Part shown: positions 25,377-56,630 of the stretch, piece after piece
How positions within the stretch are numbered: the first letter of the stretch is position 1
How the letters are laid out: each line of letters begins with the position of its first letter
Source of the DNA: Megaustenia siamemsis
Taxonomy: Eukaryota > Mollusca > Gastropoda > Stylommatophora > Ariophantidae
NCBI GenBank assembly: GCA_032433765.1
Contig: JAVIAB010000051.1
Location: forward strand, 152,657,421-152,721,420
Reading direction: 5' to 3'
Length of the DNA: 64,000 bases
The notes under the pieces: generated by a model
The model's database searches: none
What the model was told of the DNA's origin: nothing
The model's input: only the letters and a program-made list of their open reading frames with translations
Made by a program: the position numbers and the translations under genes

Positions 25377-25399
25377 GTTTATAGTAGTGCCATACGAAC

Positions 25400-25862: not shown

Positions 25863-25885
25863 ATCAGTACCTTTTTTTTAAATTT

Positions 25886-30065: not shown

Positions 30066-30247
30066 TTTCTTTGACTTAACCCCTAATTAGACACATAAGA
30101 ATGTTATGAAAGTACACCAGTCCCATAGGTGTTTAGTGTTGTCTTTGTATTGAACTGGTGGTGGGGGGGGGGTACTCTAAATGTGTTTAGATTTAAAGAA
30201 AAGTTTAAAAGTAAAGGCACTCCCTTAGCATACAAAGCAATCTTCTT

Positions 30248-31586: not shown

Positions 31587-32530
31587 TCTGGAAAGCAATC
31601 TTTGTTTTCTTGGTCCTGTTAATCAGAAACAACTGTGAATTACTCCCCGACATTTGAAGTCAATTCTTTTTTCGCATTCTCCACAAACACTCAGACACTA
31701 CTCTCCAAAACACTTAAAGAGGGTAGTGATTAGTGTTACTGACATTACTCTTGGTTCTAAAGGCGATAATGGGCACATATAACCGTACACAACCGTGCTC
31801 TCTCTCATTTTAGACTAGTATTCATCACAGTTGTGTTCATGTTTCAGATGGTTTCTAATTAGCTTCCCCTCCAGGTTGTCTGTGGTATCTCCATAATTAG
31901 TTACACTCAGAGTTGTCGGTGGTATCTCTACAATTAGTTACACTCAAAGTTGTCTGTAATATCTCCACAATTAGTTACACTCAGAATTGTCTGTAATATC
32001 TCCACAATTAGTTACACTCAAAGTTGTCTGTAATATCTCCACAATTAGTTACACTCAGAATTGTCTATAATATCTCCACAATTAGTTACACTCAGAATTG
32101 TCTGTAATATATCCACAATTAGTTACACTCAGAATTGTCTGTAATATCTCCACAATTAGTTACACTCAGAATTGTCTGTAATATCTCCACAATTAGTTAC
32201 ACTCAGAATTGTCTGTAATATCTCTACAATTAGTTACACTCAGAATTGTCTGTAATATCTCCACAATTAGTTACACTCAGAATTGTCTGTAATATCTCCA
32301 CAATTAGTTACACTAAGAGTTGTCTGTGGTATCTCTACAATTAGTTATTTTTAAGAGTTGTCTGTGGTATCTCCACAATTAGTTACAACCAAAGTTATCT
32401 GTGGTATCTCCATAATTAGTTACGTTCAAAGTTGTCTGTGATATCTCCATCATTAGTTACACTTAAAGTTATCTGTGGTATCTCCTTAATTAGTTACTCT
32501 CAAAGTTATCTGTGATATCTCCATAATTAG

Positions 32531-33112
32531 TACCTAGGAAGTCTAATGACAACCGATAATTCTCAAACAGCAGAGATAGAATCAAGATGCAACAAAGCTT
32601 GTCAAATTATCGGACAGTTATCACCACTATTGTCCAACAAGGAAATAACTCTGGAGGCAAAGCGAGCACTATACAATACAATCTTCATCCCAACGTTGTG
32701 CTACCAATGCCAGAATGGACCCTAGATGAAAGAACAATAAGAAAAATAAACATCTACAGAGATGAAATGTGTTAGACGAATGACAGGAAACAGTCTGAGA
32801 GATAAGATCAAAAATGAAGAACTGAGAAAAAAGCTAGGAATAGCCCCCGCCATAGAATATATAAGGAAACAACAGATAAAATGGTTTGGCCACGTGACAA
32901 GGCAGAAAGAACAAAACACTACACATCGAGCCTTCAACAAACGTTGTGAGAACACCAGACCCAAGTGTCGACCACAAAAAAGATGGGTCGATGGAATATT
33001 AGAAGCACTAGGAAACATAACAGCAGCAGAGGCGAACAGAAGAGCAAAAGACCGCAACATATATCTCCCTCAACGCTGAAAGGCAGATGAAGAAGGAAAG
33101 GAGAGAAGACAA
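32531..33112 (+). mobile_element. LINE-B 3' end, satellite copy 1
   Basis: Homologous to 1558-2146: YLGSLMT at the start, then DNSQTAEIESRCNKACQII, QLSPLLSNKEITLEAKRAL, CVRRMTGNSLRDK and KWFGHVTRQKEQN to the end (frame 32762-33079). Compared with the 1.5-2.1 kb copy it has a one-base loss at CCAGAATGGACC and a one-base gain in AAAAATAAACATC, so the middle is read in a shifted frame. Both lesions are shared by all four satellite copies. This copy also lacks one C near 33068, changing the last residues. Confidence 0.92.
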
Positions 33113-34176
33113 CGTTGTCTGTGATATCTCCATAATTAGCTACACTTAAAGTTGTCTGTGTTATCTCCATAATTATTTAAACTCAAAGTTGTCTGTGATA
33201 TCTCCATAATTAGTTACACTCAAAGTTGTCTGTGATATCTCCAAAATTAGTTAAACTCAAAGTTTTCTGTGATATATTCATAATTAGTTACACTTAAAGT
33301 TGTCTGTGATATCTTCATAATTATTTAAACTCAAAGTTGTCTGTGACATCTCCATAATTAGTTACACTTAAAGTTGTCTGTGATATCTCCATAATTAGTT
33401 ACACTCAAAGTTGTCTGTGATATCTTCATAATTATTTAAACTCAAAGTTGTCTGTGATATCTCCATAATTAGTTAAACTCAAAGTTGTCTGTGATATCTC
33501 CATAATTAGTTACACTCAAAGTTGTCTGTGATATCTCCATAATTAGTTAAACTCAAAGTTGTCTGTGATATCTCCATAATTAGTTACACTCAAAGTTGTC
33601 TGTGATATCTTCATAATTAGTTACACTTAAAGTTGTCTGTGATATCTTCATAATTAGTTACACTTAAAGTTGTCTATGATATCTCCATAATTAGTTACAC
33701 TTTAAGTTGTCTGTGATATCTCCATAATTAGTTACACTTTAAGTTGTGTATGATATCTCCATAATTAGTTACACTTTAAGTTGTCTGTGATATCTCCATA
33801 ATTAGTTACACTCAAATTTGTCTGTGATATCTCCATAATTAGTTAAACTCAAATTTGTCTGTGATATCTCCATAATTAGTTAAACTCAAAGTTGTCTGTG
33901 ATATCTCCATAATTAGTTACACTCAAAGTTGTCTGTGATATCTTCATAATTAGTTACACTAAGAGTTGTCTGTGGTATCTCTACAATTAGTTATTTTTAA
34001 GAGTTGTCTGTGGTATCTCCACAATTAGTTACACCCAAAGTTATCTGTGGTATCTCCATAATTAGTTACGTTCAAAGTTGTCTGTGATATCTCCATCATT
34101 AGTTACACTTAAAGTTATCTGTGGTATCTCCTTAATTAGTTACTCTCAAAGTTATCTGTGATATCTCCATAATTAG

Positions 34177-34760
34177 TACCTAGGAAGTCTAATGACAACC
34201 GATAATTCTCAAACAGCAGAGATAGAATCAAGATGCAACAAAGCTTGTCAAATTATCGGACAGTTATCACCACTATTGTCCAACAAGGAAATAACTCTGG
34301 AGGCAAAGCGAGCACTATACAATACAATCTTCATCCCAACGTTGTGCTACCAATGCCAGAATGGACCCTAGATGAAAGAACAATAAGAAAAATAAACATC
34401 TACAGAGATGAAATGTGTTAGACGAATGACAGGAAACAGTCTGAGAGATAAGATCAAAATGAAGAACTGAGAAAAAAGCTAGGAATAGCCCCCGCCATAG
34501 AATATATAAGGAAACAACAGATAAAATGGTTTGGCCACGTGACAAGGCAGAAAGAACAAAACACTACACATCGAGCCTTCAACAAACGTTGTGAGAACAC
34601 CAGACCCAAGTGTCGACCACAAAAAAGATGGGTCGATGGAATATTAGAAGCACTAGGAAACATAACAGCAGCAGAGGCGAACAGAAGAGCAAAAGACCGC
34701 AACATATATCTCCCCTCAACGCTGAAAGGCAGATGAAGAAGGAAAGGAGAGAAGACAACG
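34177..34760 (+). mobile_element. LINE-B 3' end, satellite copy 2
   Basis: Nearly identical to copy 1, with the same paired frameshifts. It additionally lacks one A at about 34456 (ATCAAAATG against ATCAAAAATG), which breaks the frame that is open in copies 1 and 3. Confidence 0.92.
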
Positions 34761-36008
34761 TTGTCTGTGATATCTCCATAATTAGCTACACTTAAAGTTG
34801 TCTGTGTTATCTCCATAATTATTTAAACTCAAAGTTGTCTGTGATATCTCCATAATTAGTTACACTCAAAGTTGTCTGTGATATCTCCAAAATTAGTTAA
34901 ACTCAAAGATTTTCTGTGATATATTCATAATTAGTTACACTTAAAGTTGTCTGTGATATCTTCATAATTATTTAAACTCAAAGTTGTCTGTGATATCTCC
35001 ATAATTAGTTACACTTAAAGTTGCCTGTGATATCTCCATAATTAGTTACACTCAAAGTTGTCTGTGATATCTTCATAATTATTTAAACTCAAAGTTGTCT
35101 GTGATATCTCCATAATTAGTTAAACTCAAAGTTGTCTGTGATATCTCCATAATTAGTTACACTCAAAGTTGTCTGTGATATCTCCATAATTAGTTAAACT
35201 CAAAGTTGTCTGTGATATCTCCATAATTAGTTACACTCAAAGTTGTCTGTGATATCTTCATAATTAGTTACACTTAAAGTTGTCTATGATATCTCCATAA
35301 TTAGTTACACTTTAAGTTGTCTGTGATATCTCCATAATTAGTTACACTTTAAGTTGTCTATGATATCTCCATAATTAGTTACACTTTAAGTTGTCTGTGA
35401 TATCTCCATAATTAGTTAAACTCAAATTTGTCTGTGATATCTCCATAATTAGTTAAACTCAAATTTGTCTGTGATATCTCCATAATTAGTTAAACTCAAA
35501 GTTGTCTGTGATATCTCCATAATTAGTTACACTCAAAGTTGTCTGTGATATCTTCATAATTAGTTACACTTTAAGTTGTCTGTAATATCTCCACAATTAG
35601 TTACACTCAGAATTGTCTGTAATATCTCCACAATTAGTTACACTCAGAATTGTCTGTAATATCTCCACAATTAGTTACACTCAGAATTGTCTGTAATATC
35701 TCTACAATTAGTTACACTCAGAATTGTCTGTAATATCTCCACAATTAGTTACACTCAGAATTGTCTGTAATATCTCCACAATTAGTTACACTAAGAGTTG
35801 TCTGTGGTATCTCTACAATTAGTTATTTTTAAGAGTTGTCTGTGGTATCTCCACAATTAGTTACACCCAAAGTTATCTGTGGTATCTCCATAATTAGTTA
35901 CGTTCAAAGTTGTCTGTGATATCTCCATCATTAGTTACACTTAAAGTTATCTGTGGTATCTCCTTAATTAGTTACTCTCAAAGTTATCTGTGATATCTCC
36001 ATAATTAG

Positions 36009-36593
36009 TACCTAGGAAGTCTAATGACAACCGATACTTCTCAAACAGCAGAGATAGAATCAAGATGCAACAAAGCTTGTCAAATTATCGGACAGTTATC
36101 ACCACTATTGTCCAACAAGGAAATAACTCTGGAGGCAAAGCGAGCACTATACAATACAATCTTCATCCCAACGTTGTGCTACCAATGCCAGAATGGACCC
36201 TAGATGAAAGAACAATAAGAAAAATAAACATCTACAGAGATGAAATGTGTTAGACGAATGACAGGAAACAGTCTGAGAGATAAGATCAAAAATGAAGAAC
36301 TGAGAAAAAAGCTAGGAATAGCCCCCGCCATAGAATATATAAGGAAACAACAGATAAAATGGTTTGGCCACGTGACAAGGCAGAAAGAACAAAACACTAC
36401 ACATCGAGCCTTCAACAAACGTTGTGAGAACACCAGACCCAAGTGTCGACCACAAAAAAGATGGGTCGATGGAATATTAGAAGCACTAGGAAACATAACA
36501 GCAGCAGAGGCGAACAGAAGAGCAAAAGACCGCAACATATATCTCCCCTCGACGCTGAAAGGCAGATGAAGAAGGAAAGGAGAGAAGACAACG
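36009..36593 (+). mobile_element. LINE-B 3' end, satellite copy 3
   Basis: Nearly identical to copies 1 and 2. The terminal frame 36240-36569 is the longest clean LINE-B C-terminus of the set (109 residues, ending YLPSTLKGR). The private change is GATACTTCTC near its left end. Confidence 0.92.
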
Positions 36594-37840
36594 TTGTCTG
36601 TGATATCTCCATAATTAGCTACACTTAAAGTTGTCTGTGTTATCTCCATAATTATTTAAACTCAAAGTTGTCTGTGATATCTCCATAATTAGTTACACTC
36701 AAAGTTGTCTGTGATATCTCCAAAATTAGTTAAACTCAAAGTTTTCTGTGATATATTCATAATTAGTTACACTTAAAGTTGTCTGTGATATCTTCATAAT
36801 TATTTAAACTCAAAGTTTGTCTGTGATATCTCCATAATTAGTTACACTTAAAGTTGTCTGTGATATCTCCATAATTAGTTACACTCAAAGTTGTCTGTGA
36901 TATCTTCATAATTATTTAAACTCAAAGTTGTCTGTGATATCTCCATAATTAGTTAAACTCAAAGTTGTCTGTGATATCTCCATAATTAGTTACACTCAAA
37001 GTTGTCTGTGATATCTCCATAATTAGTTAAACTCAAAGTTGTCTGTGATATCTCCATAATTAGTTACACTCAAAGTTGTCTGTGATATCTTCATAATTAG
37101 TTACACTTAAAGTTGTCTATGATATCTCCATAATTAGTTACACTTTAAGTTGTCTGTGATATCTCCATAATTAGTTACACTTTAAGTTGTCTATGATATC
37201 TCCATAATTAGTTACACTTTAAGTTGTCTGTGATATCTCCATAATTAGTTAAACTCAAATTTGTCTGTGATATCTCCATAATTAGTTAAACTCAAATTTG
37301 TCTGTGATATCTCCATAATTAGTTAAACTCAAAGTTGTCTGTGATATCTCCATAATTAGTTACACTCAAAGTTGTCTGTGATATCTTCATAATTAGTTAC
37401 ACTTTAAGTTGTCTGCGATATCTCCATAATTAGTTAAACTTTAAGTTGTCTGCGATATCTCCATAATTAGTTACATTTAAAGTTGTCTGTGATATCTCCA
37501 CAATTAGTTACACTCAGAATTGTCTGTAATATCTCTACAATTAGTTACACTCAGAATTGTCTGTAATATCTCCACAATTAGTTACACTCAGAATTGTCTG
37601 TAATATCTCCACAATTAGTTACCTAAGAGTTGTCTGTGGTATCTCTACAATTAGTTATTTTTAAGAGTTGTCTGTGGTATCTCCACAATTAGTTACACCC
37701 AAAGTTATCTGTGGTATCTCCATAATTAGTTACGTTCAAAGTTGTATGTGATATCTCCATCATTAGTTACACTTAAAGTTATCTGTGGTATCTCCTTAAT
37801 TAGTTACTCTCAAAGTTATCTGTGATATCTCCATAATTAG

Positions 37841-38422
37841 TACCTAGGAAGTCTAATGACAACCGATAATTCTCAAACAGCAGAGATAGAATCAAGATGC
37901 AACAAAGCTTGTCAAATTATCGGACAGTTTATCACCACTATTGTCCAACAAGGAAATAACTCTGGAGGCAAAGCGAGCACTATACAATACAATCTTCATC
38001 CCAACGTTGTGCTACCAATGCCAGAATGGACCCTAGATGAAAGAACAATAAGAAAAATAAACATCTACAGAGATGAAATGTTTAGACGAATGACAGGAAA
38101 CAGTCTGAGAGATAAGATCAAAAATGAAGAACTGAGAAAAAAGCTAGGAATAGCCCCCGCCATAGAATATATAAGGAAACAACAGATAAAATGGTTTGGC
38201 CAAGTGACAAGGCAGAAAGAACAAAACACTACACATCGAGCCTTCAACAAACGTTGTGAGAACACCAGACCCAAGTGTCGACCACAAAAAGATGGTCGAT
38301 GGAATATTAGAAGCACTAGGAAACATAACAGCAGCAGAGCGAACAGAAGAGCAAAAGACCGCAACATATATCTCCCCTCGAAGCTGAAAGGCAGATGAAG
38401 AAGGAAAGGAGAGAAGACAACG
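37841..38422 (+). mobile_element. LINE-B 3' end, satellite copy 4
   Basis: Same start and end as the other copies, with the shared frameshifts plus private ones: an extra T at about 37929, loss of GT in AAATGTTTAGACG, and single-base losses near 38288-38340. By chance these give one 180-residue open frame (37856-38398) that mixes two frames. It should not be called a gene. Confidence 0.92.
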
Positions 38423-40812
38423 TTGTCTGTGATATCTCCATAATTAGCTACACTTAAAGTTGTCTGTGTTATCTCCATAATTATTTAAACTCAAAGTTGT
38501 CTGTGATATCTCCATAATTAGTTACACTCAAAGTTGTCTGTGATATCTCCAAAATTAGTTAAACTCAAAGTTTTCTGTGATATATTCATAATTAGTTACA
38601 CTTAAAGTTGTCTGTGATATCTTCATAATTATTTAAACTCAAAGTTGTCTGTGATATCTCCATAATTAGTTACACTTAAAGTTGTCTGTGATATCTCCAT
38701 AATTAGTTACACTCAAAGTTGTCTGTGATATCTTCATAATTATTTAAACTCAAAGTTGTCTGTGATATCTCCATAATTAGTTAAACTCAAAGTTGTCTGT
38801 GATATCTCCATAATTAGTTACACTCAAAGTTGTCTGTGATATCTCCATAATTAGTTAAACTCAAAGTTGTCTGTGATATCTCCATAATTAGTTACACTCA
38901 AAGTTGTCTGTGATATCTTCATAATTAGTTTACACTTAAAGTTGTCTATGATATCTCCATAATTAGTTACACTTTAAGTTGTCTGTGATATCTCCATAAT
39001 TAGTTACACTTTAAGTTGTCTATGATATCTCCATAATTAGTTACACTTTAAGTTGTCTGTGATATCTCCATAATTAGTTAAACTCAAATTTGTCTGTGAT
39101 ATCTCCATAATTAGTTAAACTCAAATTTGTCTGTGATATCTCCATAATTAGTTAAACTCAAAGTTGTCTGTGATATCTCCATAATTAGTTACACTCAAAG
39201 TTGTCTGTGATATCTCCATAATTAGTTACACTCAAAGTTGTCTGTGATATCTTCATAATTAATTACACTTTAAGTTGTCTGCGATATCTCCATAATTAGT
39301 TAAACTTTAAGTTGTCTGCGATATCTCCATAATTAGTTACATTTAAAGTTGTCTGTGATATCTCCATAATTAGTTACATTTAAAGTTGTCTGTGATATCT
39401 CCATAATTAGTTACATTCAAAGTTGTCTGTGAAATCTCAATAATTAGCTACACTCAAAGTTGTGTGTGCTATCTCTATAATTAGCTACACTCAAAGTTGT
39501 CTGTGCTATCTCTATAATTAGTTACACTCAAGTTGTCTGTGCTATCTCTATAATTAGTTACACTCAAAGTTGTCTTTTGTATCTCTATAATTAGTTACAC
39601 TCAAAGTTGTCTTTTGTATCTCTATAATTAGTTACACCCAAAATTGTCTTTGGTATCTCTATAATTAGTTCCACTCAAAGTTGTCTGTGCTATCTCCATA
39701 ATTAGTTCGACTCAATGTTGTCTTTGGTATCTCTATAATTAGTTACACTCAAAGTTGTCTTTGGTATCTCTATATTTAGTTACACTCAAAGTTGTCTGTG
39801 ATATCTCTATAATTAGTTACACTCAAAGTTGTCCGTGATATCTCTATAATTAGTTACACTCAAAGTTGTATGTGGTATCTCTATAATTAGCTACACTCAA
39901 AGTTGTCTGTGCTGTCTCTATAACTAGCTCCACTCAAAGTTGTCTGTGATATCTCTATAACTAGCTCCACTCAAAGTTGTCTGTGATATCTCTATAACTA
40001 GCTCCACTCAAAGTTGTCTTTGGTATCTCTATAATTAGCTCCACTCAAAGTTGTCTGTGATATCTCTATAATTAGTTACACTCAAAGTCGTCTGTGTTAT
40101 TTCTATAATTAGTTACACTTAAAGTTGTCTGTGATATCTCTATAGTTAGTTACACTGAAGTTGTCTGTGGTATCTCTATAATTAGCTCCACTCAAAGTTG
40201 TCTGTGCTATCTCTATAACTAGCTCCACTCAAAGTTGTCTGTGATATCTCTATAATTAGTTCCACTCAAAGCTGTCTGTGTTATTTTATAATTAGTTCCA
40301 CTCAAGTTGTCTGTGCTATCTCCATAATTATTTTCGACTCAATGTTGTCTTTGTATCTCTATAATTAGTTTCATTAAAGTTGTCTGTGCTATCTCTATAA
40401 TTAGTTCCATTCAAAGTTGTCTGCTATCTCTATAATTAGCTCCAATCAAAGTTGTCTGTGGTATCTCTATAATTAGATCCACTCAAGGTTGTCTGTGCTA
40501 TCTCTATAATTAGCTCCACTCAAAGTTGTCTGTGCTATCTCTATAATTAGTTACACTCAAAGTTGTCTGTGATATCTCCATAATTAGTTATACTCAAAGT
40601 TGTCTGTGCTATCTCTATAATTAGTTAAAATCAAATTTGTCGATGCTATCTCTATAATTAGTTATACTCAAAGTTGTCTGTGCTATCTCTATAATTAGTT
40701 ATACTCAAAGTTGTCTGTGCTATCTCTATAATTAGTTACACTCAAGTTGTCTGTGCTATCTCTATAATTAGTTATACTCAAAGTTGTCTGTGCTATCTCC
40801 ATAATTAGTTAC

Positions 40813-41461: not shown

Positions 41462-44400
41462 CAACTGTCGACAAGTTAACGTAGTCTGTCAGTAATACAT
41501 CAACGGCCCCACAGTTAACGTAGTCTGTCAGTAGTACATCAACGGCCCCCAAGTTAACGCAGTCTGTCAGTAATACATCAACGGCCCCCAAGTTAACGTA
41601 GTCTGTCAGTAGTGCATCAACGGCCCCCAAGTTAACGTAGTCTGTCAGTAATACACCAACGGCCCCCATGTTAAGGTAGTCTGTCAGTAGTACACCAACG
41701 GCCCCCAAGTTAACGTAGTCTGTCAGTAGTACACCAACGGCTTTCAAGTTAACGTAGTCTGTCAGTAGTACACCAACGGCCCCCAAGTTAACGTAGTCTG
41801 TCAGTAGTACACCAACGGCCGCCAAGTTAACACAGTCTGTTAGTAGTACATCAACGGCCCCCAAGTTAACGTAGTCTGTCAGTAGTACATCAACGACCCC
41901 ATAGTTAACGTGGTCTGTCAGTAGTACACCAACGCCCCCCAAATTAACGTAGTCTGTCAGTTGTACACCAACGGCCCCCAATTTAACGTAGTCTGTCAGT
42001 AATACATCAACGGCCCCCAAGGTAACGTAGTCTGTCAGTAGTACACCAACGGCCGCCAAGTTAACACAGTCTGTTAGTAGTACATCAACGGCCCCCAAGT
42101 TAACGTAGTCTGTCAGTAGTACATCAACGGCCCCCAAGTTAACGTAGTCTGTCAGTAGTACATCAACGGCCCCCAAGTTAACGTAGTCTGTCAGTAGTAC
42201 ATCAACGGCCCCCAAATTAACGTATTCTGTCAGTAGTACATCAACGACTCCCAAGTTAACGTAGTCTGTCAGTAGTTCATCAACGGCTTCCAAGTTTCCA
42301 AGTTAACGTAGTCTGTCAGTAGTACATCAACGGCTCCCAAGATAACGTAGTCTGTCAGTAGTATATCAACGGCTCCCAAGTTAACGCAGTCTGTCAGTAG
42401 TATTTCAACGGATCCCAAGTTAACGTAGTCTGTCAGTAGTTCATCAACGGCTTCCAAGTTTCCAAGTTAACGTAGTCTGTCAGTAGTACATCAACGGCTC
42501 CCAAGAAAACGTAGTCTGTCAGTAGCACATCAACGGCTCCCAAGTTAACGTAGTCTGTCAGTAGTACATCAACGGCTTCCAAGTTAACGTAGTCTGTCAG
42601 TAGTACATCAACAGCTCCCAAGTTTACGTAGTCTGTCAGTAGTACACCAACGGCCCTCAAGTTAACGTAGTCTGTCAGTAGTGCACCAACGGCTCCCAAG
42701 TTAACGTAGTCTGTCAGTAGTACATCAACGCCGCCAAGTTAACGTAGTCTTTCAGTAGTACATCAACGGTCCCCAAGTTAACGTATCTGTCAGTAGTACA
42801 TCAAAGACCCCCAGGTTAACCTGGTCTGTCACTAGTACACCAACGCCCCTGAAGTTCACGTAGTCTGTCAGTAGTACACCAACGGTCCCCAAGTTAACGT
42901 AGTCTGTCAGTAGTACATCAACGGCCTCCAAGTTAATGTAGTCTGTCAGTAGTACACCAACGGCCCCCTAGTTAACGTAGTCTTTCAGTAGTACATCAAC
43001 GGCCCCCAAGTTAACATAGTCTGTCAGTTTCCACCAACGGCCCCCAAGTTAGCAGAGTCTGTTAGTAGTACCTCATCGGCCCTCAAGTTAACGTAGTCTG
43101 TCAGTAGTACATCAACGTTCCCCAAGTTAACGTAGTCTGTCAGTAGTACACCAACGGCCCCCAAGTTAACGCAGTCTGTTAGTAGTACATCAACGGCCCC
43201 CAAGTTAATGTAGTCTGTCAGTAGTAACCCAACGGCCCCAAGTTAACGTAGTCTGTCAGTAGTACATCAACGGCTCCTAAGTTAACGTAGTCTGTCAGTA
43301 GTATATCAACGACTCCCAAGTTAACGTAGTAAGACTAAGTAGTTCATAAACTGCTTCAACCTTCCAAGTTAACGTAGTCTGTCAGTAGTTCATCAACGGC
43401 TTCCAAGTTTCCAAGTTAACGTAGTCTGTCAGTAGTACATCAACGGCTCCCAAGATAACGTAGTCTGTCAGTAGTATATCAACGGCTCCCAAGTTAACGT
43501 AGTCTGTCAGTAGTATTTCAACGGATCCCAAGTTAACGTAGTCTGTCAGTAATACACCAACGGCCCCATGTTAAGGTAGTCTGTCAGTAGTACACCAACG
43601 GCCCCCAAGTTAACGTAGTCTGTCAGTAGTACACCAACGGCTTTCAAGTTAACGTAGTCTGTCAGTAGTACACCAACGGCCCCCAAGTTAACGTAGTCTG
43701 TCAGTAGTACACCAACGGCCGCCAAGTTAACACAGTCTTTTAGTAGTACATCAACGGCCCCCAAGTTAACGTAGTCTGTCAGTAGTACATCAACGACCCC
43801 ATAGTTAACGTGTTCTGTCAGTAGTACACCAACGCCCCCCAAATTAACGTAGTCTGTCAGTTGTACACCAACGGCCCCCAAGTTAACGTAGTCTGTCAGT
43901 AATACATCAACGGCCCCCAAGTTAACGTAGTCTTTCAGTAGTACATCAACGGCCCCCAAGTTAACGCAGTCTGTCAGTAATACATCAACGGCCCCTACGT
44001 TAACGTAGTCTGTCAGTAGTACATCAACGGCCCCCAAGTTAACGTAGTCTGTCAGTAATACACCAACGGCCCCCATGTTAAGGTAGTCTGTCAGTAGTAC
44101 ACCAACGGCCCCCAAGTTAACGTAGTCTGTCAGTAGTACACCAACGGCTTTCAAGTTAACGTAGTCTGTCAGTAGTACACCAACGGCCCCCAAGTAAACG
44201 TAGTCTGTCAGTAGTACACCAACGGCCGCCAAGTTAACACAGTCTGTTAGTAGTACATCAACGGCCCCCAAGTTAACGTAGACTGTCAGTAGTACATCAA
44301 CGACCCCATAGTTAACGTGGTCTGTCAGTAGTACACCAACGCCCCCCAAATTAACGTAGTCTGTCAGTTGTACACCAACGGCCCCCAATTTAACGTAGTC

Positions 44401-47400
44401 TGTCAGTAATACATCAACGGCCCCCAAGGTAACGTAGTCTGTCAGTAGTACACCAACGGCCGCCAAGTTAACACAGTCTGTTAGTAGTACATCAACGGCC
44501 CCCAAGTTAACGTAGTCTGTCAGTAGTACATCAACGGCCCCCAAGTTAACGTGGTCTGTCAGTAGTACATCAACGGCCCCCCAAGTTAACGTAGTCTGTC
44601 AGTAGTACATCAACGGCCCCCAAATTAACGTATTCTGTCAGTAGTACATCAACGACTCCCAAGTTAACGTAGTCTGTCAGTAGTTCATCAACGGCTTCCA
44701 AGTTTCCAAGTTAACGTAGTCTGTCAGTAGTACATCAACGGCTCCCAAGATAACGTAGCCTGTCAGTAGTATATCAACGGCTCCAAGTTAACGTAGTCTG
44801 TCAGTAGTATTTCAACGGATCCCAAGTTAACGTAGTCTGTCAGTAGTTCATCAACGGCTTCCAAGTTTCCAAGTTAACGTAGTCTGTCAGTAGTACATCA
44901 ACGGCTCCCAAGAAAACGTAGTCTGTCAGTAGCACATCAACGGCTCCCAAGTTAACGTAGTCTGTCAGTAGTACATCAACGGCCCCCAAGTTAACGGTGT
45001 CTGTCAGTAGTACACTAACGGCCCCCTCGTTAACGTAGTCTGTCAGTAGTACATCAACGGCTTCCAAGTTAACGTAGTCTGTCAGTAGTACATCAACAGC
45101 TCCCAAGTTTACGTAGTCTGTCAGTAGTACACCAACGGCCCTCAAGTTAACGTAGTCTGTCAGTAGTGCACCAACGGCTCCCAAGTTAACGTAGTCTGTC
45201 AGTAGTACATCAACGCCCCCAAGTTAACGTAGTCTTTCAGTAGTACATCAACGGTCCCCAAGTTAACGTATCTGTCAGTAGTACATCAACGACCCCCAGG
45301 TTAACCTGGTCTGTCACTAGTACACCAACGCCCCTGAAGTTCACGTAGTCTGTCAGTAGTACACCAACGGTCCCCAAGTTAACGTAGTCTGTCAGTAGTA
45401 CATCAACGGCCCCCAAGTTAATGTAGTCTGTCAGTAGTACACCAACGGCCCCCAAGTTAATGTAGTCTTTTAGTAGTACATCAACGGCCCCCAAGTTAAC
45501 ATAGTCTGTCAGTTTTCCACCAACGGCCCCCAAGTTAGCAGAGTCTGTTAGTAGTACCTCAACGGCCCTCAAGTTAACGTAGTCTGTCAGTAGTACATCA
45601 ACGGTCCCCAAGTTAACGTAGTCTGTCAGTAGTACACCAACGGCCCCCAAGTTAACGCAGTCTGTTAGTAGTACATCAACGGCCCCCAAGTTAATGTAGT
45701 CTGTCAGTAGTAACCCAACGGCGCCAAGTTAACGTAGTCTGTCAGTAGTACATCAACGGCTCCCAAGTTAACGTAGTCTGTCAGTAGTATATCAACGACT
45801 CCCAAGTTAACGTAGTAAGACTAAGTAGTTCATCAACGGCTTCCAACCTTCCAAGTTAACGTAGTCTGTCAGTAGTTCATCAACGGCTTCCAAGTTTCCA
45901 AGTTAACGTAGTCTGTCAGTAGTACATCAACGGCTCCCAAGATAACGTAGTCTGTCAGTAGTATATCAACGGCTCCCAAGTTAACGTAGTCTGTCAGTAG
46001 TATTTCAACGGATCCCAAGTTAACGTAGTCTGTCAGTAGTTCATCAACGGCTTCCGAGTTTCCAAGTTAACGTAGTCTGTCAGTAGTACATCAACGGCTC
46101 CCAAGAAAACGTAGTCTGTCAGTAGCACATCAACGGCTCCCAAGTTAACGTAGTCTGTCAGTAGTACATCAACGGCCCCCAAGTTAACGGTGTCTGTCAG
46201 TAGTACACTAACGGCCCCCACGTTAACGTAGTCTGTCAGTAGTACATCAACGGCTTCCAAGTTAACGTAGTCTGTCAGTAGTACATCAACAGCTCCCAAG
46301 TTTACGTAGTCTGTCAGTAGTACACCAACGGCCCTCAAGTTAACGTAGACTGTCAGTAGTGCACCAACGGCTCCCAAGTTAACGTAGTCTGTCAGTAGTA
46401 CATCAACGCCCCCAAGTTAACGTAGTCTTTCAGTAGTACATCAACGGTCCCCAAGTTAACGTATCTGTCAGTAGTACATCAACGACCCCCAGGTTAACGT
46501 GGTCTGTCACTAGTACACCAACGCCCCTGAAGTTAACGTAGTCTGTCAGTAGTACATCATCGGTCCCCAAGTTAACGTAGTCTGTCAGTAGTACACCAAC
46601 GGCCCCCAAGTTAACGCAGTCTGTTAGTAGTACATCAACGGCCCCCAAGTTAATGTAGTCTGTCAGTAGTACACCAACGGCCCCAAGTTAACGTAGTCTG
46701 TCAGTAGTACATCAACGGCTCCCAAGTTAACGTAGTCTGTCAGTAGTATATCAACGACTCCCAAGTTAACGTAGTAAGACTAAGTAGTTCATCAACGGCT
46801 TCCAAGCTTCCAAGTTAACGTAGTCTGTCAGTAGTACATCAACGGCTCCCAAGTTAACGGTGTCTGTCAGTAGTACACTAACGGCCCCCAAGTTAACGTA
46901 GTCTGTCAGTAGTACATCAACGGCTCCCAAGTTAACGTAGTCTTTCAGTAGTACATCAACCGCTCCCAAGTTAACGTAGTCTGTCAGTAGTACACCAACG
47001 GCCCTCAAGTTAACGTAGTCTGTCAGTAGTACATCAACGGCTCCCAAGTTAACGTAGTCTGTCAGTAGTACATCAACGGCCAAGGTAACGTAGTCTTTCA
47101 GTAGTACACCAACGGCCCCAAGTTAACGTAGTCTGTCAGTAGTACATCAACGGCTCCCAAGATAACGTAGTCTGTCAGTAGTATATCAACGGCTCCCAAG
47201 TTAACGTAGTCTGTCAGTAGTATTTCAACGGATCCCAAGTTAACGTAGTCTGTCAGTAATACATCAACGGCCCCCATGTTAAGGTAGTCTGTCAGTAGTG
47301 CACCAACGGCCCCCAAGTTAACGTAGTCTGTCAGTAGTACACCAACGGCTTTCAAGTTAACGTAGTCTGTCAGTAGTACACCAACGGCCCCCAAGTTAAC

Positions 47401-50400
47401 GTAGTCTGTCAGTAGTACACCAACGGCCGCCAAGTTAACACAGTCTTTTAGTAGTACATCAACGGCCCCCAAGTTAACGTAGTCTGTCAGTAGTACATCA
47501 ACGACCCCATAGTTAACGTGGTCTGTCAGTAGTACACCAACGCCCCCCAAATTAACGTAGTCTGTCAGTTGTACACCAACGGCCCCCAAGTTAACGTAGT
47601 CTGTCAGTAATACATCAACGGCCCCCAAGTTAACGTAGTCTTTCAGTAGTACATCAACGGCCCCAAGTTAACGCAGTCTGTCAGTAATACATCAACGGCC
47701 CCTACGTTAACGTAGTCTGTCAGTAGTACATCAACGGCCCCCAAGTTAACGTAGTCTGTCAGTAATACACCAACGGCCCCCATGTTAAGGTAGTCTGTCA
47801 GTAGTACACCAACGGCCCCCAAGTTAACGTAGTCTGTCAGTAGTACACCAACGGCTTTCAAGTTAACGTAGTCTGTCAGTAGTACACCAACGGCCCCCAA
47901 GTAAACGTAGTCTGTCAGTAGTACACCAACGGCCGCCAAGTTAACACAGTCTGTTAGTAGTACATCAACGGCCCCCAAGTTAACGTAGACTGTCAGTAGT
48001 ACATCAACGACCCCATAGTTAACGTGGTCTGTCAGTAGTACACCAACGCCCCCAAATTAACGTAGTCTGTCAGTTGTACACCAACGGCCCACAATTTAAC
48101 GTAGTCTGTCAGTAATACATCAACGGCCCCAAGGTAACGTAGTCTGTCAGTAGTACACCAACGGCCGCCAAGTTAACACAGTCTGTTAGTAATACATCAA
48201 CGGCCCCCAAGTTAAAGTAGTCTGTCAGTAGTACATCAACGGCCCCCAAGTTAACGTAGTCTGTCACTAGTACATCAACGGCCCCCAAGTTAACGTAGTC
48301 TGTCAGTAGTACATCAACGGCCCCCAAATTAACGTATTCTGTCAGTAGTACATCAACGACTCCCAAGTTAACGTAGTCTGTCAGTAGTTCATCAACGGCT
48401 TCCAAGTTTCCAAGTTAACGTAGTCTGTCAGTAGTGCATCAACGGCTCCCAAGATAACGTAGCCTGTCAGTAGTATATCAACGGCTCCCAAGTTAACGTA
48501 GTCTGTCTGTAGTATTTCAACGGATCCCAAGTTAACGTAGTCTGTCAGTAGTTCATCAACGGCTTCCAAGTTTCCAAGTTAACGTAGTCTGTCAGTAGTA
48601 CATCAACGGCTCCCAAGAAAACGTAGTCTGTCAGTAGCACATCAACGGCTCCCAAGTTAACGTAGTCTGTCAGTAGTACATCAACGGCCCCCAAGTTAAC
48701 GGTGTCTGTCAGTAGTACACTAACGGCCCCCACGTTAACGTAGTCTGTCAGTAGTACATCAACGGCTTCCAAGTTAACGTAGTCTGTCAGTAGTACATCA
48801 ACAGCTCCCAAGTTTACGTAGTCTGTCAGTAGTACACCAACGGCCCTCAGGTTAACGTAGTCTGTCAGTAGTGCACCAACGGCTCCCAAGTTAACGTAGT
48901 CTGTCAGTAGTACATCAACGCCCCAAGTTAACGTAGTCTTTCAGTAGTACATCAACGGTCCCCAAGTTAACGTATCTGTCAGTAGTACATCAACGACCCC
49001 CAGGTTAACCTGGTCTGTCACTAGTACACCAACGCCCCTGAAGTTCACGTAGTCTGTCAGTAGTACACCAACGGTCCCCAAGTTAACGTAGTCTGTCAGT
49101 AGTACATCAACGGCCCCCAAGTTAATGTAGTCTGTCAGTAGTACACCAACGGCCCCCAAGTTAATGTAGTCTTTCAGTAGTACATCAACGGCCCCCAAGT
49201 TAACATAGTCTGTCAGTTTTCCACCAACGGCCCCCAGGTTAGCAGAGTCTGTTAGTAGTACCTCAACGGCCCTCAAGTTAACGTAGTCTGTCAGTAGTAC
49301 ATCAACGGTCCCCAAGTTAACGTAGTCTGTCAGTAGTACACCAACGGCCCCCAAGTTAACGCAGTCTGTTAGTAGTACATCAACGGCCCCCAAGTTAATG
49401 TAGTCTGTCAGTAGTAACCCAACGGCCCAAGTTAACGTAGTCTGTCAGTAGTACATAAACGGCTCCCAAGTTAACGTAGTCTGTCAGTAGTATATCAACG
49501 ACTCCCAAGTTAACGTAGTAAGACTAAGCAGTTCATCAACGGCTTCCAACCTTCCAAGTTAACGTAGTCTGTCAGTAGTTCATCAACGGCTTCCAAGTTT
49601 CCAAGTTAACGTAGTCTGTCAGTAGTACATCAACGGCTCCCAAGATAACGTAGTCTGTCAGTAGTATATCAACGGCTCCCAAGTTAACGTAGTCTGTCAG
49701 TAGTATTTCAACGGATCCCAAGTTAACGTAGTCTGTCAGTAGTTCATCAACGGCTTCCGAGTTTCCAAGTTAACGTAGTCTGTCAGTAGTACATCAACGG
49801 CTCCCAAGAAAACGTAGTCTGTCAGTAGCACATCAACGGCTCCCAAGTTAACGTAGTCTGTCAGTAGTACATCAACGGCCCCCAAGTTAACGGTGTCTGT
49901 CAGTAGTACACTAACGGCCCCCACGTTAACGTAGTCTGTCAGTAGTACATCAACGGCTTCCAAGTTAACGTAGTCTGTTAGTAGTACATCAACAGCTCCC
50001 AAGTTTACGTAGGCTGTCAGTAGTACACCAACGGCCCTCAAGTTAACGTAGACTGTCAGTAGTGCACCAACGGCTCCCAAGTTAACGTAGTCTGTCAGTA
50101 GTACATCAACGCCCCAAGTTAACGTAGTCTTTCAGTAGTACATCAACGGTCCCCAAGTTAACGTATCTGTCAGTAGTACATCAACGACCCCCAGGTTAAC
50201 GTGGTCTGTCACTAGTACACCAACGCCCCTGAAGTTAACGTAGTCTGTCAGTAGTACATCAACGGTCCCCAAGTTAACGTAGTCTGTCAGTAGTACACCA
50301 ACGGCCCCCAAGTTAACGCAGTCTGTTAGTAGTACATCAACGGCCCCCAAGTTAATGTAGTCTGTCAGTAGTACACCAACGGCCCCAAGTTAACGTAGTC

Positions 50401-53400
50401 TGTCAGTAGTACATCAACGGCTCCCAAGTTAACGTAGTCTGTCAGTAGTATATCAACGACTCCCAAGTTAACGTAGTAAGACTAAGTAGTTCATCAACGG
50501 CTTCCAAGCTTCCAAGTTAACGTAGTCTGTCAGTAGTACATCAACGGCTCCCAAGTTAACGGTGTCTGTCAGTAGTACACTAACGGCCCCAAAGTTAACG
50601 TAGTCTGTCAGTAGCACATCAACGGCTCCCAAGTTAACGTAGTCTTTCAGTAGTACATCAACCGCTCCCAAGTTAACGTAGTCTGTCAGTAGTACACCAA
50701 CGGCCCTCAAGTTAACGTAGTCTGTCAGTAGTACATCAACGGCTCCCAAGTTAACGTAGTCTGTCAGTAGTACATCAACGGCCAAGGTAACGTAGTCTTT
50801 CAGTAGTACACCAACGGCCCCAAGTTAACGTAGTCTGTCAGTAGTACATCAACGGCCCCCAAGTTAACGTAGTCTGTCAGTAGTACATCAATGGCCCCAA
50901 GTTAACGTAGTCTGTCAGTAGTACATCAACGGCCCCCAAGTTAACGTAGTCTGTCAGTAGTACATCAACGGCCCCCAAATTAACGTATTCTGTCAGTAGT
51001 ACATCAACGACTCCCAAGTTAACGTAGTCTGTCAGTAGTACATCAACGGCTCCCAAGAAAACGTAGTCTGTCAGTAGCACATCAACGGCTCCCAAGTTAA
51101 CGTAGTCTGTCAGTAATACATCAACGGCCCCCAAGTTAACGGTGTCTGTCAGTAGTACACTAACGGCCCCCACGATAACGTAGTCTGTCAGTAGTACATC
51201 AACGGCTTCCAAGTTAACGTAGTCTGTCAGTAGTACATCAACAGCTCCCAAGTTTACGTAGTCTGTCAGTAGTACACCAACGGCCCTCAAGTTAACGTAG
51301 TCTGTCAGTAGTGCACCAACGGCTCCCAAGTTAACGTAGTCTGTCAGTAGTACATCAACGCCCCCAAGTTAACGTAGTCTTTCAGTAGTACATCAACGGT
51401 CCCCAAGTTAACGTATCTGTCAGTAGTACATCAACGACCCCCAGGTTAACCTGGTCTGTCACTAGTACACCAACGCCCCTGAAGTTCACGTAGTCTGTCA
51501 GTAGTACACCAACGGTCCCCAAGTTAACGTAGTCTGTCAGTAGTACATCAACGGCCCCAAGTTAATGTAGTCTGTCAGTAGTACACCAACGGCCCCCAAG
51601 TTAATGTAGTCTTTCAGTAGTACATCAACGGCCCCCAAGTTAACATAGTCTGTCAGTTTTCCACCAACGGCCCCCAGGTTAGCAGAGTCTGTTAGTAGTA
51701 CCTCAACGGCCCTCAAGTTAACGTAGTCTGTCAGTAGTACATCAACGGTCCCCAAGTTAACGTAGTCTGTCAGTAGTACACCAACGGCCCCAAGTTAACG
51801 CAGTCTGTTAGTAGTACATCAACGGCCCCCAAGTTAATGTAGTCTGTCAGTAGTAACCCAACGGCCCCAAGTTAACGTAGTCTGTCAGTAGTACATAAAA
51901 GGCTCCCAAGTTAACGTAGTCTGTCAGTAGTATATCAACGACTCCCAAGTTAACGTAGTAAGACTAAGCAGTTCATCAACGGCTTCCAACCTTCCAAGTT
52001 AACGTAGTCTGTCAGTAGTTCATCAACGGCTTCCAAGTTTCCAAGTTAACGTAGTCTGTCAGTAGTACATCAACGGCTCCCAAGATAACGTAGTCTGTCA
52101 GTAGTATATCAACGGCTCCCAAGTTAACGTAGTCTGTCAGTAGTATTTCAACGGATCCCAAGTTAACGTAGTCTGTCAGTAGTTCATCAACGGCTTCCGA
52201 GTTTCCAAGTTAACGTAGTCTGTCAGTAGTACATCAACGGCTCCCAAGAAAACGTAGTCTGTCAGTAGCACATCAACGGCTCCCAAGTTAACGTAGTCTG
52301 TCAGTAGTACATCAACGGCCCCCAAGTTAACGGTGTCTGTCAGTAGTACACTAACGGCCCCCACGTTAACGTAGTCTGTCAGTAGTACATCAACGGCTTC
52401 CAAGTTAACGTAGTCTGTAGTAGTACATCAACAGCTCCCAAGTTTACGTAGGCTGTCAGTAGTACACCAACGGCCCTCAAGTTAACGTAGACTGTCAGTA
52501 GTGCACCAACGGCTCCCAAGTTAACGTAGTCTGTCAGTAGTACATCAACGCCCCCAAGTTAACGTAGTCTTTCAGTAGTACATCAACGGTCCCCAAGTTA
52601 ACGTATCTGTCAGTAGTACATCAACGACCCCCAGGTTAACGTGGTCTGTCACTAGTACACCAACGCCCCTGAAGTTAACGTAGTCTGTCAGTAGTACATC
52701 AACGGTCCCCAAGTTAACGTAGTCTGTCAGTAGTACACCAACGGCCCCAAGTTAACGCAGTCTGTTAGTAGTACATCAACGGCCCCCAAGTTAATGTAGT
52801 CTGTCAGTAGTACACCAACGGCCCCAAGTTAACGTAGTCTGTCAGTAGTACATCAACGGCTCCCAAGTTAACGTAGTCTGTCAGTAGTATATCAACGACT
52901 CCCAAGTTAACGTAGTAAGACTAAGTAGTTCATCAACGGCTTCCAAGCTTCCAAGTTAACGTAGTCTGTCAGTAGTACATCAACGGCTCCCAAGTTAACG
53001 GTGTCTGTCAGTAGTACACTAACGGCCCCAAGTTAACGTAGTCTGTCAGTAGCACATCAACGGCCCAAGTTAACGTAGTCTTTCAGTAGTACATCAACCG
53101 CTCCCAAGTTAACGTAGTCTGTCAGTAGTACACCAACGGCCCTCAAGTTAACGTAGTCTGTCAGTAGTACATCAACGGCTCCCAAGTTAACGTAGTCTGT
53201 CAGTAGTACATCAACGGCCAAGGTAACGTAGTCTTTCAGTAGTACACCAACGGCCCCAAGTTAACGTAGTCTGTCAGTAGTACATCAACGGCCCCCAAGT
53301 TAACGTAGTCTGTCAGTAGTACATCAATGGCCCCCAAGTTAACGTAGTCTGTCAGTAGTACATCAACGGCCCCCAAGTTAACGTAGTCTGTCAGTAGTAC

Positions 53401-56400
53401 ATCAACGGCCCCCAAATTAACGTATTCTGTCAGTAGTACATCAACGACTCCCAAGTTAACGTAGTCTGTCAGTAGTTCATCAACGGCTTCCAAGTTTCCA
53501 AGTTAACGTAGTCTGTCAGTAGTACATCAACGGCTCCAAGATAACGTAGCCTGTCAGTAGTATATCAACGGCTCCCAAGTTAACGTAGTCTGTCTGTAGT
53601 ATTTCAACGGATCCCAAGTTAACGTAGTCTGTCAGTAGTTCATCAACGGCTTCCAAGTTTCCAAGTTAACGTAGTCTGTCAGTAGTACATCAACGGCTCC
53701 CAAGAAAACGTAGTCTGTCAGTAGCACATCAACGGCTCCCAAGTTAACGTAGTCTGTCAGTAATACATCAACGGCCCCCAAGTTAACGGTGTCTGTCAGT
53801 AGTACACTAACGGCCCCCACGATAACGTAGTCTGTCAGTAGTACATCAACGGCTTCCAAGTTAACGTAGTCTGTCAGTAGTACATCAACAGCTCCCAAGT
53901 TTACGTAGTCTGTCAGTAGTACACCAACGGCCCTCAAGTTAACGTAGTCTGTCAGTAGTGCACCAACGGCTCCCAAGTTAACGTAGTCTGTCAGTAGTAC
54001 ATCAACGCCCCCAAGTTAACGTAGTCTTTCAGTAGTACATCAACGGTCCCCAAGTTAACGTATCTGTCAGTAGTACATCAACGACCCCAGGTTAACCTGG
54101 TCTGTCACTAGTACACCAACGCCCCTGAAGTTCACGTAGTCTGTCAGTAGTACACCAACGGTCCCCAAGTTAACGTAGTCTGTCAGTAGTACATCAACGG
54201 CCCCCAAGTTAATGTAGTCTGTCAGTAGTACACCAACGGCCCCCAAGTTAATGTAGTCTTTCAGTAGTACATCAACGGCCCCAAGTTAACATAGTCTGTC
54301 AGTTTTCCACCAACGGCCCCCAGGTTAGCAGAGTCTGTTAGTAGTACCTCAACGGCCCTCAAGTTAACGTAGTCTGTCAGTAGTACATCAACGGTCCCCA
54401 AGTTAACGTAGTCTGTCAGTAGTACACCAACGGCCCCCAAGTTAACGCAGTCTGTTAGTAGTACATCAACGGCCCCCAAGTTAATGTAGTCTGTCAGTAG
54501 TAAACCAACGGCCCCAAGTTAACGTAGTCTGTCAGTAGTACATAAACGGCTCCCAAGTTAACGTAGTCTGTCAGTAGTATATCAACGACTCCCAAGTTAA
54601 CGTAGTAAGACTAAGTAGTTCATCAACGTCTTCCAACCTTCCAAGTTAACGTAGTCTGTCAGTAGTTCATCAACGGCTTCCAAGTTTTCAAGTTAACGTA
54701 GTCTGTCAGTAGTACATCAACGGCTCCCAAGATAACGTAGTCTGTCAGTAGTATATCAACGGCTCCCAAGTTAACGTAGTCTGTCAGTAGTATTTCAACG
54801 GATCCAAGTTAACGTAGTCTGTCAGTAGTTCATCAACGGCTTCCGAGTTTCCAAGTTAACGTAGTCTGTCAGTAGTACATCAACGGCTCCCAAGAAAACG
54901 TAGTCTGTCAGTAGCACATCAACGGCTCCCAAGTTAACGTAGTCTGTCAGTAGTACATCAACGGCCCCCAAGTTAACGGTGTCTGTCAGTAGTACACTAA
55001 CGGCCCCCACGTTAACGTAGTCTGTCAGTAGTACATCAACGGCTTCCAAGTTAACGTAATCTGTCAGTAGTACATCAACAGCTCCCAAGTTTACGTAGGC
55101 TGTCAGTAGTACACCAACGGCCCTCAAGTTAACGTAGACTGTCAGTAGTGCACCAACGGCTCCCAAGTTAACGTAGTCTTTCAGTAGTACATCAACGCCC
55201 CCAAGTTAACGTAGTCTTTCAGTAGTACATCAACGGTCCCCAAGTTAACGTATCTGTCAGTAGTACATCAACGACCCCCAGGTTAACGTGGTCTGTCACT
55301 AGTACACCAACGCCCCTGAAGTTAACGTAGTCTGTCAGTAGTACATCAACGGTCCCCAGTTAACGTAGTCTGTCAGTAGTACACCAACGGCCCCAAGTTA
55401 ACGCAGTCTGTTAGTAGTACATCAACGGCCCCAAAGTTAATGTAGTCTGTCAGTAGTACACCAACGGCCCCAAGTTAACGTAGTCTGTCAGTAGTACATC
55501 AACGGCTCCCAAGTTAACGTAGTCTGTCAGTAGTATATCAACGACTCCCAAGTTAACGTAGTAAGACTAAGTAGTTCATCAACGGCTTCCAAGCTTCCAA
55601 GTTAACGTAGTCTGTCAGTAGTACATCAACGGCTCCCAAGTTAACGGTGTCTGTCAGTAGTACACTAACGGCCCCCAAGTTAACGTAGTCTGTCAGTAGT
55701 ACATCAACGGCTCCCAAGTTAACGTAGTCTTTCAGTAGTACATCAACCGCTCCCAAGTTAACGTAGTCTGTCAGTAGTACACCAACGGCCCTCAAGTTAA
55801 CGTAGTCTGTCAGTAGTACATCAACGGCTCCCAAGTTAACGTAGTCTGTCAGTAGTACATCAACGGCCAAGGTAACGTAGTCTTTCAGTAGTACACCAAC
55901 GGCCCCCAAGTTAACGTAGTCTGTCAGTAGTACATCAACGGCCCCCAAGTTAACGTAGTCTGTCAGTAGTACACCAACGGCCCCCAAGTTAACGTAGTCG
56001 TTCAGTAGTGCACCAACGGCTCCCAAGTTAACATAGTCTGTCAGTAGTACATCAAAGGCCCCAAGTTAACGTATTCGTTCAGTAGTACATCAACGGCCCT
56101 AAGTTAACGTAGTCTGTCAGTAGTACACCAACGGCTGCGAAGTTAACGTAGTCTGTCAGTAGTACATCAACGGCCCCAAGTTAACGTACTTTTTCAGTAG
56201 TACACCATCGGCCACCAAAGTTAACGTAGTCTGTCAGTAGTACATCAACGGCCCTCATGTTAACGTAGTCTGTCAGTAGTACACCAACGGCCCCCAAGTT
56301 AACGTGGTGTGTCAGTAGTTCACCAATGGCCCCCATATTAACGGAGTCTGTCAGTAGTACATGAACGGCTCCCAAATTAACGTGGACTGTCAGTAGTACA

Positions 56401-56630
56401 CCAACGGTCCCCAAGTTAACGTAGTCTGTCAGTAGTACACCAACGGCCCCCAAGTTAACGTAGTATGTCAGTAGTACACCAACGGCCCCCAAGTTAACGT
56501 AGTCTGTCAGTAGTACGTCAACGGCCCCCAAGTTAATGTAGTCTGTCAGTAGTACACCAACGGCCCCCAAGTTAACGTAGTCTGTCAGTAGTACCTCAAC
56601 GGCCCGCAAGTTAACGTAGTCTGCAATTAA
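41462..56630 (-). repeat. 15.2-kb 39-bp minisatellite with higher-order structure
   Basis: About 390 copies of a 39-bp unit containing GTAGTCTGTCAGTAGTACAT then CAACGGCCCCCAAGTTAAC. Only the minus strand stays open, with a 13-residue period (VNLGAVDVLLTDY). Distinct variants (for example GAAAACG, GGTGTCTG, TTTCCACC, AAGACTAAG) recur in fixed order. Equivalent blocks end at 45184 and 48889 (3705 bp, exactly 95 units), 46377 and 50080 (3703 bp), 51329 and 53976 (2647 bp), and 45184 and 46377 (1193 bp). Many minus-strand frames end where a run of five G becomes four. No start signal or non-repeat domain is attached, so I do not call a gene. Confidence 0.95.

What the first reader, a model, noticed from the sequence alone, without database searches (positions are those of the whole stretch)
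31872..40812. A truncated LINE captured by a satellite and amplified four times with it
Four LINE-B 3' ends sit at the same point of the 37-bp unit, share the same two frameshifts, and are spaced 1646, 1832 and 1832 bp. This shows one insertion into the array followed by tandem amplification of a unit of about 1.83 kb (LINE plus about 34 minisatellite copies). It is a retrotransposon turning into satellite DNA, caught with few private mutations per copy.
Basis: seen in the sequence. Interest (0 to 1): 0.75.

Follow-up and report, generated by a model that had tools for sequence, protein, structure and literature searches.

The report
Jumping-gene fragment copied within a minisatellite
A dead piece of a jumping gene landed once inside a run of short DNA repeats and was then copied to four places as that run grew, which is a clear example of a known way that repeat DNA evolves and shows no sign of a function.

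Summary
Four 580-583 bp 3' ends of one LINE family sit at the same phase of a 37-bp minisatellite, spaced 1646, 1832 and 1832 bp. They share 15 differences from the family majority, including two compensating frameshifts; 9 of the 15 are in none of 21 dispersed copies sampled. So there was one insertion, later multiplied. A 1318-column block common to all four is 98.8-99.5% identical.

There is no uniform 1.83-kb unit. The three inter-LINE arrays are mosaics of right-flank and left-flank monomers with three different switch points, all in 37-bp register. Two have the same total length, hence the equal spacing; the third is six monomers shorter at its junction. That is the signature of unequal in-register exchange.

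Ten of 18 private events are one-base indels, against 7 of 110 in dispersed copies, so some are probably consensus errors. The 37-bp array was found only here: this is a composite higher-order repeat, not a genome satellite. An older two-copy case lies 131 Mb away, and another LINE-in-array is unmultiplied. New member of a known kind.

The parts
31875..32531 (+). Left part of the 37-bp minisatellite (18 monomers, the last cut after 27 bases by LINE copy 1); source of the L-type monomers in the inter-LINE arrays
32532..33113 (+). LINE 3' end, copy 1 (5'-truncated, 3'-complete)
33114..34177 (+). Inter-LINE array 1, 29 monomers (last one cut); one extra monomer at 33632-33668; six monomers shorter at the junction than arrays 2 and 3
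33928..33964 (+). Hybrid monomer at junction 1 (right-flank monomer R21 joined to left-flank monomer L11)
34178..34759 (+). LINE 3' end, copy 2
34760..36009 (+). Inter-LINE array 2, 34 monomers (last one cut)
35575..35611 (+). Hybrid monomer at junction 2 (R22/L06)
36010..36592 (+). LINE 3' end, copy 3
36593..37841 (+). Inter-LINE array 3, 34 monomers (last one cut), same length as array 2 to one base but with a different switch point
37482..37518 (+). Hybrid monomer at junction 3 (R24/L08)
37842..38421 (+). LINE 3' end, copy 4 (most private one-base indels)
38422..40812 (+). Right part of the 37-bp minisatellite, 65 monomers; source of the R-type monomers; one extra monomer at 39200-39236
1561..2130 (+). 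Dispersed copy of the same LINE family in the window (94% identical); its LINE sequence continues upstream of the array copies' truncation point
41472..56623 (+). Neighbouring 39-bp minisatellite, used as a control: kb-scale internal duplications, no blastn hit to the LINE piece

Best explanation
A 5'-truncated, 3'-complete copy of a high-copy LINE family inserted once into an existing 37-bp minisatellite, by target-primed reverse transcription as far as its ends show. It decayed there, and was later multiplied from one to four copies as a passenger of the array. Multiplication was by misaligned homologous exchange (unequal sister-chromatid exchange, or an equivalent template switch or gene conversion) between monomers on the right and left of the LINE. 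Each exchange joined a right-flank monomer to a left-flank monomer in register and duplicated the LINE. A later in-register deletion of six monomers and two single-monomer gains gave the present spacings. Shown: single insertion, tandem multiplication, in-register hybrid monomers, differing junctions. Inferred: the exact recombination pathway and the order of events. No function is indicated.
For: All four copies share the same truncation point, the same monomer phase and 15 differences from the majority of 21 dispersed copies; 9 of the 15 occur in none of the 21. The dispersed copies continue 5' of the truncation point and end in the same 3' region with a GAA-rich tail. Each inter-LINE array is a two-parent mosaic: 5, 6 and 6 edits, against 42, 80 and 65 if drawn from the right flank only and 397, 594 and 599 from the left flank only. 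Switch points fall inside monomers and keep the 37-bp register in 3 of 3 arrays. Arrays 2 and 3 use the same right-plus-left total (1250 bp) with switch points 76-92 bp apart, and array 1, with its one extra monomer set aside, uses 1028 bp, 6 x 37 less. The left flank is found once in the genome. An independent LINE-in-minisatellite pair with the same 5' junction in both copies lies at L051.
Against: No reads were available, so copy number in the living genome is untested. Ten of 18 private events are one-base indels, which suggests consensus errors in the array. The array insertion lacks the 9-12 bp target-site duplication seen exactly in 8 of 22 family ends examined: in monomer phase it has either a 6-10 bp target deletion or an unusually long duplication of about 27-31 bp, and periodicity hides which. 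Two independent exchanges at the same offset could also give arrays 2 and 3. The inter-copy array at L051 is not a clean mosaic (87 edits).
Confidence: 0.87

Rival explanations
1. Assembly artefact: the real array holds one or two LINE copies and the assembler duplicated a segment.
For: Private differences are unusually rich in one-base indels (10 of 18 against 7 of 110 in dispersed copies; 4 of 9 without copy 4), a mark of imperfect consensus; copy 4 is worst. No reads could be examined.
Against: The three inter-LINE arrays have three different switch points and different monomer contents, which a duplicated contig segment would not produce. Eight substitutions also separate the copies.
Confidence: 0.08
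2. Repeated independent insertions of the LINE at a preferred site of the 37-bp monomer.
For: The same phase is used four times. A hot-spot reading was raised in print for Mboumar in ant satellite DNA, where five copies sit at the same TA of a MITE (passages of PMC2581405).
Against: Identical 5' truncation, 15 shared differences of which 9 are in none of 21 other copies, and near-identical flanking monomers around every copy.
Confidence: 0.01
3. One-step amplification of a fixed 1.83-kb unit, for example through an extrachromosomal circle and rolling-circle copying.
For: Two spacings are exactly 1832 bp.
Against: The two 1832-bp units differ at the junction and array 1 differs again. A circle would give identical junctions, unless one was later converted by neighbouring monomers.
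Confidence: 0.05
4. The array is younger than the LINE, having grown outward from a LINE end.
For: In the loci fetched, arrays sometimes start within 10 bp of a LINE 3' end (L025, L051, L053, L063).
Against: Monomers on both sides of the LINE belong to one 37-bp family and resume in phase apart from the 6-10 missing bases. At the 10-kb loci the frequency of LINE in array fits array coverage (2 of 15 loci against 15% of bases).
Confidence: 0.03

Closest known systems
Mboumar mariner copies in Messor ant satellite DNA (passages of PMC2581405)
   Same: A transposable element found repeatedly at one site within satellite DNA, with a role in satellite evolution proposed
   Different: A DNA transposon with some intact copies; the shared site is a TA in a MITE (IRE-130) that itself lies in the satellite. 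A hot spot was suggested there and was not strongly supported by in vitro hops; here shared variants and junctions point to one insertion
LINE-related satellite DNAs listed in reviews: PROsat (LINE-1 ORF2), common cetacean satellite (L1 3' end), chicken HinfI/CR1 (passages of PMC9659126 and PMC6947457)
   Same: A LINE 3' region within a tandemly repeated unit
   Different: Those are named satellite families; here there are four copies at one locus and the LINE is a passenger of another repeat
Composite satellite monomers with stretches of TEs, 'TE graveyard' hypothesis (passages of PMC12628747)
   Same: TE insertion into tandem DNA, then tandemisation of the mixed sequence
   Different: Here the junctions are still readable, so an early step is visible; the passages seen argue from composite, degraded end products
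Higher-order repeats of alpha satellite (search listings only; details recalled)
   Same: A multi-monomer block duplicated in register by unequal exchange
   Different: Chromosomal setting here unknown, short 37-bp monomer, four imperfect copies only

Membership tests
Endonuclease-encoding non-LTR retrotransposon (LINE) | Reverse transcriptase of the LINE type in related longer copies | tested here: met
   RVT_1 E 4e-27 on L008; the 10 solved-structure matches at E up to 1 are R2, LINE-1 and similarly named reverse transcriptase proteins, E 5e-12 to 1e-9
Endonuclease-encoding non-LTR retrotransposon (LINE) | APE-type endonuclease domain upstream of the RT | tested here: inconclusive
   Exo_endo_phos_2 E 0.0023, below its cut-off, on an open frame of L055; Ribosomal_S2 matched the same frame slightly better (E 0.0012), also below its cut-off. 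The frame looks endonuclease-like by eye
Endonuclease-encoding non-LTR retrotransposon (LINE) | 5' truncation, constant 3' end, short target-site duplication in the family | tested here: met
   20 fetched copies plus one in the window share the 3' end region; exact 9-12 bp duplications at 8 of 22 ends examined, some of the other 14 being alignment limits and not true ends
Endonuclease-encoding non-LTR retrotransposon (LINE) | Same target-site duplication at the array insertion itself | tested here: inconclusive
   Phase shows 6-10 bases missing or a duplication of about 27-31 bp; periodicity of the target hides which
Higher-order repeat (composite) | Multi-monomer block repeated with copies much more alike than neighbouring monomers | tested here: met
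   98.8-99.5% identity over a 1318-column block in four copies
Higher-order repeat (composite) | Uniform unit with constant junction | tested here: not met
   Three junctions, three different switch points
Satellite DNA family | Abundant, many loci or very long arrays | tested here: not met
   37-bp array found at this locus only, about 9 kb; the 14 other listed matches are 66-73% identical. The search scores only its best candidates

The most novel reading that the evidence does not exclude
In this minisatellite-rich genome, LINE insertions that fall into arrays are repeatedly multiplied by array turnover, so that 'LINE plus minisatellite' composites at different stages (one copy at L063, two old copies at L051, four young copies here) form a readable time series of how composite satellites start, with the LINE acting as a register anchor for further exchange.
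Probability: 0.3. Interest if true: 0.45.

Novelty: new member of a known kind. Interest (0 to 1): 0.3.

Why it matters
TE-derived and composite satellites are mostly described as finished products. Here the insertion, the monomer order and each exchange junction can still be read, so one locus gives the number, register and rough relative timing of the exchanges. It also shows that equal spacing of copies need not mean a uniform amplified unit: spacing records the misalignment offset, not the breakpoint. The general process is known, and nothing suggests a function.

Tried and rejected
Independent insertions at a hot spot: rejected on shared variants. Uniform 1.83-kb unit or rolling circle: rejected as the sole process on the three junctions. 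Preferential insertion of the LINE into arrays: not supported; arrays of at least 100 bp cover 15% of the 15 fetched 10-kb loci, and in 2 of these 15 loci (L051, L063) a LINE has array close by on both sides. One-sided contacts also occur: L025 and an old fragment in L053 at the 3' end, L057 at the 5' end (14 bp). The 20 short loci held too little flank for a fair count. All these loci were chosen by likeness to the array LINE. LINE as the cause of the amplification: not supported, because the neighbouring 39-bp array shows kb-scale identical runs of monomers and no blastn hit to the LINE piece (the tblastx list was cut at 60 rows and does not cover that array). Further tandem LINE pairs in the two hit tables (40 rows; 40 of the 41 rows, one short row left out; 78 distinct places): only this locus and L051 hold same-strand pairs within 6 kb. 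The tables were seeded with those two loci and list only top-scoring copies, so this is no genome-wide rate. A two-parent mosaic at L051 was not clean (87 edits), as expected of an older, scrambled duplication, but it does not prove the same mechanism there. Eight paper searches gave no exact LINE-plus-minisatellite match that I could see in the listings, and only five papers were opened, by passages. The LINE clade was not assigned and the host species was not identified. A self-comparison by blastn printed nothing, and a marker pattern matched nothing; neither is used.
Full report
What is there. The window holds a 37-bp minisatellite at 31875-40812 interrupted four times by a 580-583 bp sequence at 32532-33113, 34178-34759, 36010-36592 and 37842-38421; start spacings are 1646, 1832 and 1832 bp. 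The inserts are the 3' end of a LINE. Further copies are a 94% match at 1561-2130 of the window, where LINE sequence continues upstream, and very many in the 2.59-Gb genome (6998 first-look candidates, 40 scored, best listed match outside the array 96%). Related copies carry a reverse transcriptase domain whose nearest solved structures are R2 and LINE-1 proteins. An upstream frame matches the endonuclease-reverse transcriptase model Exo_endo_phos_2 only below its cut-off; Ribosomal_S2 matched the same frame slightly better, also below its cut-off. The clade was not assigned.

One insertion. In 19 of the 20 dispersed copies fetched, and in the copy at 1561-2130, LINE sequence runs well upstream of the array copies' start; in L020 it stops about ten bases further upstream. 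The dispersed copies end in the same 3' region with a GAA-rich tail. The array copies are thus 5'-truncated and 3'-complete. Against the column majority of 21 dispersed copies, over about the first 560 bases, the four array copies share 13 substitutions, one one-base deletion and one one-base insertion. Of these 15 shared differences, 9 (7 substitutions and both indels) are in none of the 21 copies. The 21 are top-scoring matches plus the window copy, so they are not a random sample. All four copies leave the monomer after base 27 and resume at base 1 as I cut it.

Target site. Of 22 family ends that I examined, 8 have exact target-site duplications of 9-12 bp, as expected of target-primed reverse transcription. 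The other 14 gave no clear exact one by that test; some of these are limits of the alignment and not true ends, and two belong to the one L051 insertion. At L051 a duplication of about 10 bp can be read by eye from the junctions printed. The array insertion does not fit: in phase it shows 6-10 missing target bases or else a duplication of about 27-31 bp, and the periodic target hides which. A small target deletion, or later loss at the 5' side, is my reading (inference).

How it was multiplied. I cut the array into monomers. Left of copy 1 lie 18 L-type monomers and right of copy 4 lie 65 R-type monomers. Each inter-LINE array starts as the right flank starts and ends as the left flank ends. 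A two-parent mosaic explains arrays 1, 2 and 3 with 5, 6 and 6 edits, against 42, 80 and 65 for right flank alone and 397, 594 and 599 for left flank alone (one extra monomer was set aside in array 1 and one in the right flank). The switch falls inside a monomer and keeps register in 3 of 3. The switch points differ: about 798-803 bases of right flank plus 225-230 of left in array 1, 816-823 plus 427-434 in array 2, and 899-908 plus 342-351 in array 3. Arrays 2 and 3 have the same total (1250 bp) although their switch points differ, because in a misaligned exchange the spacing records the offset and not the breakpoint. Array 1 totals 1028 bp, six monomers less. The simplest history is one misaligned exchange at an offset of 34 monomers plus the LINE, further copies made in LINE register, a local conversion or second exchange that moved one junction by about two monomers, and a six-monomer deletion in array 1. 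Two separate exchanges at the same offset are not excluded, nor are replication template switches in place of crossing-over.

How recent. Over the 1318 columns common to all four units, pairwise identity is 98.8-99.5%. By my reading of those columns there are 8 substitutions and 10 one-base indels. Family copies have 103 private substitutions and 7 private indel events in 21 copies; the contrast is strong (Fisher p about 2e-6, and 0.004 with copy 4 left out), and the older pair at L051 has 35 substitutions and 1 indel. Part of the private indels here, 6 of the 10 being in copy 4, are therefore probably consensus errors. This test was devised after seeing the data and the counts are small. Within the LINE part the copies differ by four substitutions in all, against 13 shared substitutions, 7 of them seen in no other sampled copy. 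So multiplication is several times younger than the insertion, unless conversion keeps the copies alike (inference). Copies 1 and 2 share one substitution away from the majority that copies 3 and 4 lack; the same state is also seen in four dispersed copies, so it is weak evidence of order.

Is it special? The 37-bp array is at this locus only: of 39 listed matches, 25 lie in it and 14 elsewhere at 66-73% identity. The left flank is found once; the right flank could not be searched. The neighbouring 39-bp array (41472-56623) also has kb-scale internal duplication, for example 12 identical successive monomers 2440 bp apart, and no blastn hit to the LINE piece, so large in-register duplication does not need a LINE. 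In 15 fetched 10-kb loci, arrays cover 15% of bases, and in 2 of the 15 a LINE has array within 10 bp of both ends. One of these (L063) is a single insertion with an 11-bp exact target-site duplication. The other (L051; G000:C51:21504700-21514600, about 131 Mb away on the same contig) holds two copies in a 28-bp minisatellite, 1841 bp apart, with the same 5' junction and 35 substitutions between them. Its inter-copy array is not a clean mosaic, in keeping with age. So in this small sample LINE capture happens about as often as arrays offer targets, and multiplication has happened at least twice.

Known or new. Transposable elements inside satellite DNA, and satellites with LINE parts, are described. 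I saw passages on Mboumar in ant satellite DNA, with five copies at the same TA of a MITE there (PMC2581405), on LINE-derived satellites (PMC9659126; PMC6947457), on composite monomers (PMC12628747) and on satellite sources (PMC12692304). Higher-order repeats were seen in search listings only. I file this as a new member of a known kind. Its merit is legibility: insertion, offset and switch points can still be read.

Limits. No reads, no other individuals and no relatives were available; copy number and the one-base indels rest on the assembly.

Noticed in passing
L051 (G000:C51:21504700-21514600), minus strand 7998-6886 and 6157-5041: A second, older LINE-in-minisatellite composite: two copies of the same LINE family, same 5' junction, 1841 bp apart in a 28-bp array. 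A third copy of the family in the opposite orientation lies at 2662-3589.
   Followed up: yes
L063 (G000:C151:11960500-11970400), 4358-5307: A single LINE inside a 24-bp minisatellite with array on both sides and an 11-bp target-site duplication, not multiplied.
   Followed up: partly
41472-56623: 39-bp minisatellite of 385 monomers with longer marker monomers recurring at kb spacings (46762, 50464, 52903, 55549) and runs of 6-12 identical monomers at offsets of 2.4-8.8 kb: higher-order duplication without a detected LINE.
   Followed up: partly
30247-30525, compared with 3427-3572: A 135-bp segment, which looks by eye like the 3' end of another LINE family on the minus strand, is tandemly doubled at 30247 but single at 3427; its edges are TTC-rich, so a microsatellite-primed duplication is possible.
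   Followed up: no
9638-11396 and 11913-12064: A 1.76-kb GAA-rich simple array lies about 0.5 kb beyond the 3' end of a LINE fragment of related sequence, in a family whose tail is itself GAA-rich.
   Followed up: no
17691-19650 and 24420-25869: A repeated element present in direct and inverted copies (79-88% identical), one of them doubled with a 486-bp period next to a 38-bp array.
   Followed up: no
37842-38940: LINE copy 4 and its right flank hold 6 of the 10 private one-base indels of the four units, a likely sign of poor consensus in the last copy.
   Followed up: partly
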